The notes beneath the pieces were generated by a model, which did not search any database, was not told the origin of the DNA, and saw only the letters and a list, made by a program, of their open reading frames with translations. The position numbers and the translations under genes were made by a program. DNA of 64,000 bases from contig OX638345.1 in NCBI GenBank assembly GCA_951813535.1, forward strand, positions 1,919,158 through 1,983,157, in the 5' to 3' direction. Origin of the DNA: an uncultured Dehalococcoidia bacterium (GTDB lineage Bacteria; Chloroflexota; Dehalococcoidia; Lucifugimonadales; UBA3495). Below are positions 52,025-54,299 of this stretch, piece after piece (the stretch's first letter is position 1; every line of letters begins with the position of its first letter).

Positions 52025-52051
52025 CAGGGGCGGGTCATCGACCCGCCCCTG
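52025..52051. repeat. GGGGCG palindrome, variant of the dispersed family
   Basis: CAGGGGCGGGT / ACCCGCCCCTG around CATCG, 29 bp after the SDR stop; same arms as the family but a GGGTCAT centre. Tandem with the copy at 52064. Confidence 0.8.
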
Positions 52052-52063
52052 GCGTTTCACCTG

Positions 52064-52089
52064 CAGGGGCGAATGATCGTCCGCCCCTG
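52064..52089. repeat. Dispersed palindrome, copy 4
   Basis: CAGGGGCG-AATGATCGTC-CGCCCCTG, with the family GAATGATC centre. Fifteen bp before the convergent stop at 52104. Confidence 0.88.
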
Positions 52090-52103: not shown

Positions 52104-52907
52104 TTACTGCTGGTTGGTGCCAACCAGAGCCCAGGCCTTCTCTTCCATCGACGGAAGGATGGCCTGCACCAGGTCATTGTCGAGATTGGCGGCCACGGTG
52201 GGGTAGCCGGCGCGGTCGATCATGCTGGCCAGGTTGCCGGACTTGAACTGGTCCAGGGTCCAGGCCAGGGTGTTCCCGCTGGTGGTCACGTCCCAATAGA
52301 TCCGCACGTCCTGGTTGCGCGGGCCATAGTGGTAGTGCGGAGCGATCTCGAAGCAGTCGAAAGCCAACAGCTCGAACTCCTGCCCCAGGTGGTCGGTCAG
52401 CACGTGGATGGCAACGCCGCGGTCGTTGGCCGCGCCGATGTTGCTGCGGAATTCCACGCCGAAGCGGATGTTGCCCGCCTCGTAGATGTGGTCGCCGCGG
52501 AAGTGCGTGACCGTGCGCCGCTCGTCGCGGGACTTGCCCAACGCGCAGGCCTCGACCTCATCCATCTTGTTCTCGTCGATGCCCTGGGACTCGACGGCAG
52601 AGGCCAGATCGTCGTAGCCGGCTCGGCGCACCATGGCGGGCAGGTTGGTCCGGATGTTCTTCAGAGTCCAGCCCAACGGCGTGCCAACGGTGGTCTTGTC
52701 CATGTGCAGCCGGATGTTCATGTTCTCCGGCCCGTAGTGGTAGTGCGGGTCCTGGTCGAAGCAGTCAAACCGCAGGATCTCCGTGTCGTGTCCGTCGACA
52801 TCGCCGAACACCTGGACCATCAAACCCTGGTCGGGCATGATTTCCTTGCGGTAGGACAGGGCCACGTCCACCGGCCCAATATTGACAATGGTGTCTCCCT
52901 TTTCCAT
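52104..52907 (-). CDS. Internally duplicated protein with FDCF and PHYHYGP motifs, function unknown
   Basis: 267 residues made of two homologous units: about 26-105 and about 162-242. Each contains FDCF, PHYHYGP, an Asn, an Arg, D-TT-G, WTL, M and RAGY in the same order; about half of the residues are identical across the best 50. The His-Tyr-His motif suggests a metal or ligand site repeated twice. No signal peptide or membrane segment. I do not recognise it. ATG 52907 with GAGGAGG about eight bases before. It stands alone, convergent with the SDR and divergent from the SprT-like gene. Confidence 0.75.
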   Translation of the reverse strand: MEKGDTIVNIGPVDVALSYRKEIMPDQGLMVQVFGDVDGHDTEILRFDCFDQDPHYHYGPENMNIRLHMDKTTVGTPLGWTLKNIRTNLPAMVRRAGYDDLASAVESQGIDENKMDEVEACALGKSRDERRTVTHFRGDHIYEAGNIRFGVEFRSNIGAANDRGVAIHVLTDHLGQEFELLAFDCFEIAPHYHYGPRNQDVRIYWDVTTSGNTLAWTLDQFKSGNLASMIDRAGYPTVAANLDNDLVQAILPSMEEKAWALVGTNQQ

Positions 52908-53066
52908 GAAGCTCGCCTCCTCGTGGAATGTGCGTTTGTACGGAGGTCACGGCTGTCGTGACCGTTCCTGTTTCCGGGATTATAGCACTGCCGGAAATTA
53001 GCGCAAGAACACTTTTCAAAAGTTCGTCCAATTCCATGGCGAAATGGCGCACACCTCTTATAATTC

Positions 53067-53837: not shown

Positions 53838-54299
53838 ATGGAAATCACATTAAGCGCAGAGTCAGTTGCCATCATTGGCATCTGCGTAGTCATACTGCTG
53901 GCTGTAGTAGGTGGGTTTATCGCCCAGGTGCGCTATACCAGCAGGCTGCCCACGCGGGAGGAGTTGCACGCCACTTGCGACGAACTCCGTCAGGAAATGG
54001 CCACCATGCGCGAGGAGCTCCGTCAAGAGATGGTAGCCATGCGGGAGGAGTTCCGCCGGGACATGGCGGCCATGCGTGATGAATTGCGGGAGGAGTTCCG
54101 CCGGGACATGGCGACCATGCGCGAGGAGTTCTCCCGGGACATGGCGGCCATGCGTGACGAACTCCGTCAGGAGATGGCTGCGATGCGCAATGAGCTCCTC
54201 GGGGCGATCCGCGAGAGCGAGGCCCGGATCATCAAGGCTTTGGTCAATCACCAGCACCCACAGCCGGACGGCCCGACCATTTTCATTGAGCCTGTCTGA
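53838..54299 (+). CDS. Membrane-anchored coiled-coil protein with 11-residue repeats
   Basis: 153 residues: one transmembrane helix (8-30) then a long charged helix. Residues 48-117 hold six copies of an 11-residue unit (DELRQEMATMR, EELRQEMVAMR, EEFRRDMAAMR, EEFRRDMATMR, EEFSRDMAAMR, DELRQEMAAMR), with an extra DELR inserted after the third. Such hendecads make a right-handed coiled coil. The last 30 residues are less ordered. Unknown role; a membrane-attached scaffold or spacer is plausible. ATG 53838. Confidence 0.75.
   Translation: MEITLSAESVAIIGICVVILLAVVGGFIAQVRYTSRLPTREELHATCDELRQEMATMREELRQEMVAMREEFRRDMAAMRDELREEFRRDMATMREEFSRDMAAMRDELRQEMAAMRNELLGAIRESEARIIKALVNHQHPQPDGPTIFIEPV
53979..54188 (+). 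repeat. 33-bp tandem coding repeat
   Basis: The six 11-residue units are also repeated in DNA (GAGGAG...CGTCAAGAGATG and similar), with a 12-bp insertion after the third unit. Copy number may vary among strains by slippage. Confidence 0.75.

What the first reader, a model, noticed from the sequence alone, without database searches (positions are those of the whole stretch)
52104..52907. Unrecognised two-unit protein with repeated PHYHYGP motif
Two units of about 80 residues share FDCF, PHYHYGP, D-TT-G, WTL and RAGY in order. The His/Tyr motif is unusual and repeated, implying a pseudo-symmetric ligand or metal site. No known family comes to mind, and it stands as a lone gene between palindromes and a SprT-like gene.
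Basis: seen in the sequence. Interest (0 to 1): 0.6.

Follow-up and report, generated by a model that had tools for sequence, protein, structure and literature searches.

The report
Two-unit DUF7700 protein of marine Chloroflexota
The gene makes a protein of two matching halves that belong to a catalogued but unstudied family (DUF7700), each half carrying a conserved Asp/His/Arg cluster that looks like a small active or metal-binding site; the family is real and strongly kept in one group of marine and sponge bacteria, but nobody knows what it does.

Summary
The ORF at 52104-52907 (-) encodes 267 aa in two tandem homologous units (39% identical, E=8e-29) with the motifs in the order described. 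The family is not unknown: both units are DUF7700 (PF24777, E=1.7e-75), a named Pfam family with no function and no paper found. Single-unit homologues exist, in the same genome and elsewhere. A deep-alignment AlphaFold2 model (pLDDT 94) gives both units the same six-strand-plus-helices layout; no solved structure matches well. The gene is under strong purifying selection, is almost always a lone gene, and is one of four DUF7700 paralogues in this SAR202-type genome. New here: in a sister paralogue, unit 1 has lost exactly the polar conserved residues (R20, E43, D48, P54, H55, H57, R66) while keeping the structural ones. This defines one D-HxH-centred functional site per unit. I favour a cytosolic two-site enzyme with a metal-binding or acid-base D/HxH centre (about 0.4). 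A distant tie to DUF7718 is suggestive, to TumE toxins weaker; the gene is not a toxin-antitoxin pair. Within the genus the mRNA leader carries a hairpin whose sequence changes but whose pairing persists.

The parts
52104..52907 (-). Protein-coding gene, 267 aa, two tandem DUF7700 domains (type A paralogue)
   Evidence: dN/dS 0.03-0.13
52548..52886 (-). Unit 1, DUF7700 match (residues 8-120)
52134..52484 (-). Unit 2, DUF7700 match
52728..52769 (-). Unit 1 motif FDCFDQDPHYHYGP (residues 47-60) with D48, H55, H57
52320..52361 (-). Unit 2 motif FDCFEIAPHYHYGP (residues 183-196) with D184, H191, H193
52916..52921 (-). Shine-Dalgarno AGGAGG
   Evidence: sequence; a GGAGG core is present in all 16 aligned upstream regions
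52945..52963 (-). Leader hairpin GGUCACG-ACAGC-CGUGACC, just after the promoter -10 box; pairing kept with changed sequence in the genus
   Evidence: no such dyad expected by chance in the window; no Rfam match
52979..52984 (-). -10 box TATAAT (extended, TGCTATAAT)
   Evidence: conserved in relatives; not listed by the consensus scan, which asks for a better -35 hexamer
53001..53006 (-). -35-like TTGCGC (TTGCCA in many relatives), 16 bases from the -10 box
52027..52087 (.). Two REP-like palindromes between the convergent SDR and DUF7700 genes

Best explanation
The gene encodes a cytosolic, stand-alone protein made of two DUF7700 domains. Shown: the two units arose by duplication; both belong to PF24777; they are predicted with the same order of secondary structure; and the family is maintained as several paralogues in this clade. 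Shown at sequence level: each unit carries one block of conserved polar residues (unit 1: R20, E43, D48, H55, H57, R66; unit 2: R154, E179, D184, H191, H193, R202), and this block is lost together in unit 1 of paralogue B. Inferred: the block forms one active or ligand site per unit, on adjacent strands of the sheet, with Asp and the HxH pair as metal ligands or acid-base pair and the two arginines binding an acidic (phosphate or carboxylate) substrate. The type A protein is then a two-site enzyme, probably of small-molecule or nucleotide/RNA phosphoester metabolism, and type B has become a one-site version in which unit 1 is only a scaffold. The substrate and the metal are not known.
For: DUF7700 match, two stretches, 250.7 bits against a cut-off of 25. 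Unit-unit homology. AlphaFold2 model pLDDT 94.2, pTM 0.80, same element order in both units. Among 194 distinct units, D48/H55/H57 read D-H-H in 160 and N-S-V, N-S-I or H-S-I in 32, with no intermediates (the other two are incomplete matches); the 32 also lose R20, E43, P54 and R66 but keep G28, C49, F50, Y56, Y58, P60, D70, W80 and M92. Those 32 are unit 1 of type B, one clade at 100/100 support. All six polar positions of unit 2 are invariant in 47 homologues. Divergent single-unit homologues keep D...HxH even where C, F or Y change. Purifying selection, dN/dS 0.03-0.13. One homologue is fused to a carboxymuconolactone decarboxylase-like domain, which fits a metabolic role.
Against: The joint loss is a single event in one clade, so it shows that the residues belong together but not what they do. 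No coordinates were available, so spatial clustering of the six residues is untested. No solved homologue with a ligand, and no fold match with Foldseek E under 0.001. Gene neighbours give no pathway, as the gene is almost always monocistronic. A ligand-binding, non-catalytic protein would show the same pattern.
Confidence: 0.4

Rival explanations
1. DUF7700 is a chromosomal, non-toxin relative of the RYD...HxH families DUF7718 and TumE, and acts on RNA or another nucleic acid; the two-unit form is a domesticated enzyme without an antitoxin.
For: Three divergent single-unit DUF7700 proteins weakly match DUF7718 over the motif block (E 0.0032, 0.027, 0.033). Profile comparison of divergent DUF7700 with DUF7718 and with TumE scores 24.9 and 28.1, against maxima of 19.3 and 19.7 in 150 column shuffles each. 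TumE is described as an alpha+beta fold with helices packed on an antiparallel sheet, inhibits translation, and is proposed but not proven to be an RNase (PMC10584680).
Against: The TumE alignment spans only 19 columns and does not pair HxH with HxH. The abundant DUF7700 units alone give next to no signal. DUF7718 and TumE proteins do not hit the DUF7700 model. The window protein is acidic, pI 4.9.
Confidence: 0.22
2. A non-catalytic ligand- or metal-sensing or scaffold protein: the D-HxH site binds a ligand and the two-unit protein signals or sequesters.
For: Some type A homologues end in a coiled-coil-like tail of the KTKAQLIDELEALRQQVAAL kind. Loss of one site is tolerated in type B. The gene is lone, with its own promoter and a leader hairpin.
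Against: No effector domain in the window protein; no neighbouring regulated gene is kept across genomes beyond local synteny.
Confidence: 0.22
3. A nucleic-acid-binding protein of the PUR/Whirly kind (two repeats of four strands and a helix forming an intramolecular dimer).
For: The best rows of the second-look structure alignment are PUR-alpha repeats I-II (Z 5.1-5.4, 80-82 residues, rmsd 3.0-3.5), and Whirly, MRP1/2 and ThermoDBP chains recur lower down.
Against: Z under 8 is common for unrelated chains (note). Foldseek itself gives no E under 0.001. The protein is acidic, 41 D/E against 24 K/R, pI 4.9, and most homologues are at pI 4.7-6.1, unlike a protein that binds nucleic acid through a basic sheet.
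Confidence: 0.08

Closest known systems
DUF7700 (Pfam PF24777)
   Same: Both units match over the whole model, far above the cut-off
   Different: Nothing disqualifying; the family has no known function. Here it occurs as a tandem pair; single-unit members also exist
DUF7718 (Pfam PF24839)
   Same: Strand ending in RYD followed by a His motif; weak hits from divergent DUF7700 members
   Different: The window protein does not match the model; DUF7718 is a short single-unit protein
TumE (DUF6516, PF20126), toxin of TumE-TumA systems (PMC10584680)
   Same: RYD/RWD strand end followed by a His-rich HxH stretch and a C-terminal helix; alpha+beta fold of a sheet plus helices
   Different: No model match; no partner antitoxin gene; two units; kept across the genus at a fixed chromosomal place
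PUR-alpha / Whirly fold
   Same: Weak structural likeness of units of strands plus helix and a two-repeat arrangement
   Different: Acidic protein, no sequence match, low Z

Membership tests
DUF7700 (PF24777) | Profile match above the curated cut-off (25 bits) | tested here: met
   250.7 bits, E=1.7e-75, two stretches
TumE-TumA toxin-antitoxin | Match to the TumE model PF20126 | tested here: not met
   No TumE hit for the protein up to E=10; none in the whole genome up to E=10
TumE-TumA toxin-antitoxin | Two-gene operon with an antitoxin | tested here: not met
   Lone gene in the window; only 5 of 66 loci have any same-strand neighbour within 100 bp
TumE-TumA toxin-antitoxin | Inhibits growth/translation in E. 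coli and is neutralised by its partner | not testable with these tools
   Needs an experiment; feature described in PMC10584680
TumE / DUF7718 superfamily (remote) | Profile-profile similarity beyond composition | tested here: inconclusive
   0 of 150 shuffles reach the real score for either family, but short alignments, low hhalign probabilities and no reciprocal hmmscan hits
DUF7718 (PF24839) | Match to the model by the window protein | tested here: not met
   Only DUF7700 listed up to E=10; weak hits only from divergent relatives
PUR/Whirly nucleic-acid-binding fold | Same fold | tested here: inconclusive
   Z 5.4 at best
PUR/Whirly nucleic-acid-binding fold | Basic nucleic-acid-binding surface | tested here: inconclusive
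   pI 4.87, 41 acidic against 24 basic residues; surface not mapped
Metalloprotein with D/HxH ligands | Bound metal | not testable with these tools
   Only conservation and joint loss of the residues

The most novel reading that the evidence does not exclude
DUF7700 is a new two-site enzyme family, built on a fold shared with the TumE toxins and DUF7718, that a marine bacterial clade has turned into a set of core house-keeping paralogues, one of which has let one of its two active sites die.
Probability: 0.2. Interest if true: 0.6.

Novelty: new member of a known kind. Interest (0 to 1): 0.36.

Why it matters
SAR202-type Chloroflexota are abundant in the ocean and in sponges, and part of their conserved gene set has no known function. 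DUF7700 is a strongly conserved, multi-paralogue family in this clade. The natural comparison between paralogues A and B names a handful of residues and a ready-made dead-site control, which makes a functional test direct. If the tie to TumE/DUF7718 holds, it would link a toxin family of unknown chemistry to stand-alone cellular proteins.

Tried and rejected
No match: NCBIfam, PADLOC, phages and plasmids by tblastn, viral contigs, solved structures by sequence (best E 0.89). PHROGs gave only a weak hit (E 0.084). Rfam over the gene and leader: nothing. The single-sequence AlphaFold model was useless (pLDDT 43) and was replaced by the alignment-based one. Foldseek against PDB and viral models: no E under 0.001. 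No paper in the library mentions DUF7700 or DUF7718. Gene neighbourhood as a route to function: the type A neighbours (SDR, glycosyltransferase-like, purH/M/F, LLM oxidoreductase, gamma carbonic anhydrase-like, smpB) are conserved synteny without operon linkage, so no pathway is claimed. Toxin-antitoxin reading rejected for lack of a partner. The leader hairpin as an intrinsic terminator: rejected, as no terminator was found on the gene's strand and it lies between promoter and Shine-Dalgarno. The 974-codon frame in L066 is an open frame only; just its last third matches DUF7700. In one search the per-residue table is shifted by one; one search holds the corrected counts.

Full report
What is there. 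The open reading frame at 52104-52907 on the minus strand starts with ATG and encodes 267 residues. Its halves, residues 1-131 and 132-267, align at 39% identity over 108 residues with E=8e-29. The gene is real by selection: against 13 orthologues, dS is 0.19-0.88 and dN/dS 0.03-0.13.

Family. Pfam names it: DUF7700, PF24777, E=1.7e-75, two stretches. NCBIfam, PADLOC, phage and plasmid collections, and the PDB by sequence have nothing. No paper in the library mentions the family. So the claim 'no known family' is wrong, but the family is a name without a function.

Distribution and architecture. The host genome (4.38 Mb, one contig) holds four DUF7700 genes: the window gene (type A); a second two-unit gene (type B, L002); a single-unit gene (type C, L003); and a distant one (type D, L004/L019). 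All 13 other genomes of the genus searched have 5-6 matches, as do most of the family; 43 of 60 relatives are positive, but only 9 of 301 genomes sampled across the phylum. A scan of a collection of 84,980 genomes confirmed 239 relatives from one motif pattern; the 80 kept are mostly labelled SAR202, Dehalococcoidia or Chloroflexi, with some in Entotheonella/Tectomicrobia and Alphaproteobacteria. One homologue (L015) is fused to a carboxymuconolactone decarboxylase-like domain.

Context. In the genus the gene lies convergent to an SDR gene, beside RNase H-like, purH, purM and purF on one side, and SprT-like, LLM oxidoreductase, gamma carbonic anhydrase-like and smpB on the other (domain names and, for the pur genes, smpB and carbonic anhydrase, from reading the sequence). 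The synteny is old, but the gene is its own transcription unit: only 5 of 66 loci have a same-strand neighbour within 100 bp. The promoter is visible as TTGCGC/TTGCCA-16-TATAAT with an extended -10, and is kept in relatives.

Structure. A model from 47 aligned homologues has mean pLDDT 94 and pTM 0.80. Each unit reads six strands, then helices, with corresponding elements 134-137 residues apart. No PDB match reaches E 0.001 with Foldseek. The realigned candidates put PUR-alpha repeats first at Z 5.1-5.4, with Whirly, MRP1/2 and ThermoDBP chains lower down. That level is common among unrelated chains, and the protein is acidic (pI 4.9), so I do not lean on it.

The site. Among 194 distinct units, D48, H55 and H57 are D, H and H in 160, and N/H, S and V/I in 32; no unit is in between (the other two are incomplete matches). 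The same 32 also lose R20, E43, P54 and R66, but keep the glycines, C49, F50, Y56, Y58, P60, D70, W80 and M92. They are all unit 1 of type B, a clade with 100/100 support. So the conserved positions split into a polar block that can be lost as a whole and a structural set that cannot. I read this as one functional site per unit, with the tyrosines of PHYHYGP belonging to the framework. The loss happened once, so this groups the residues but does not tell chemistry. Divergent single-unit relatives keep D...HxH while other motif letters drift.

Mechanism. My best account is a two-site enzyme, with D/HxH as metal ligands or acid-base pair and the arginines holding an acidic substrate; type B is a one-site derivative. 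Shown: homology, conservation, joint loss. Inferred: pocket, metal, catalysis, substrate class. A sensing or sequestering role is not excluded.

Remote relatives. Three divergent single-unit DUF7700 proteins weakly hit DUF7718 (E 0.0032-0.033). Profile comparison of the divergent set with DUF7718 and TumE exceeds all 150 column shuffles. But probabilities are low, the TumE alignment covers only 19 columns, and the reverse searches do not list DUF7700. TumE is a translation-inhibiting toxin of two-gene systems whose RNase activity is proposed but unproven (PMC10584680). The window gene fails the tests for TumE membership: no model match and no partner gene. The relationship is a lead, not a filing.

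Leader hairpin. Between the -10 box and the Shine-Dalgarno, all 14 genus members can form a hairpin at the same place (mean z -3.2 against dinucleotide shuffles; the region further upstream gives +0.7), although the stem sequence differs between lineages (GGTCACG/CGTGACC, GCAGCC/GGCTGC, and others). Neighbouring genes do not show it (there some DUF7700 starts were called too far upstream, which weakens the DUF7700 row), nor do most type B genes. Rfam has no match. Changing sequence with kept pairing suggests an RNA element rather than a fixed operator; its role is unknown, and a formal covariation count was not made.

Verdict. A confirmed observation. The 'unrecognised' protein is a member of a catalogued but dark family. 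The gain here is the definition of the site through the A/B paralogue comparison, the lone-gene and clade-wide conserved status, and a cautious lead to DUF7718/TumE.

Noticed in passing
window 52945-52963 and equivalent leaders in L020-L031, L040: Conserved-position mRNA leader hairpin with changing stem sequence in front of the DUF7700 type A gene, absent from the leaders of neighbouring genes and most type B genes.
   Followed up: partly
window 9717, 23897, 35622, 52027, 52066, 55370 (and 3831): Dispersed REP-like palindromes of the form GGGGCGAATGATCATTCGCCCC; two of them sit between the convergent SDR and DUF7700 genes.
   Followed up: no
window 53838-54299: 153-aa protein with a hydrophobic start and a repeated ELRQEMAAMREE-type coiled coil; only sub-threshold Pfam matches such as Apolipoprotein.
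   Followed up: no
L015 1474-2499: Fusion of a carboxymuconolactone decarboxylase-like domain (PF02627) to a DUF7700 domain whose motif is PHYHAP.
   Followed up: partly
L043, L045, L051, L058, L065 C-termini: Type A homologues with an added tail of the KTKAQLIDELEALRQQVAAL kind, like linkers seen before PAS domains (recalled, not tested); Pfam finds nothing in L043 besides DUF7700.
   Followed up: no
L019/L004 (type D paralogue): Distant DUF7700 paralogue kept across the clade with motif RFDPHGSRGHWHKGG: D and HxH kept, C and F lost.
   Followed up: partly
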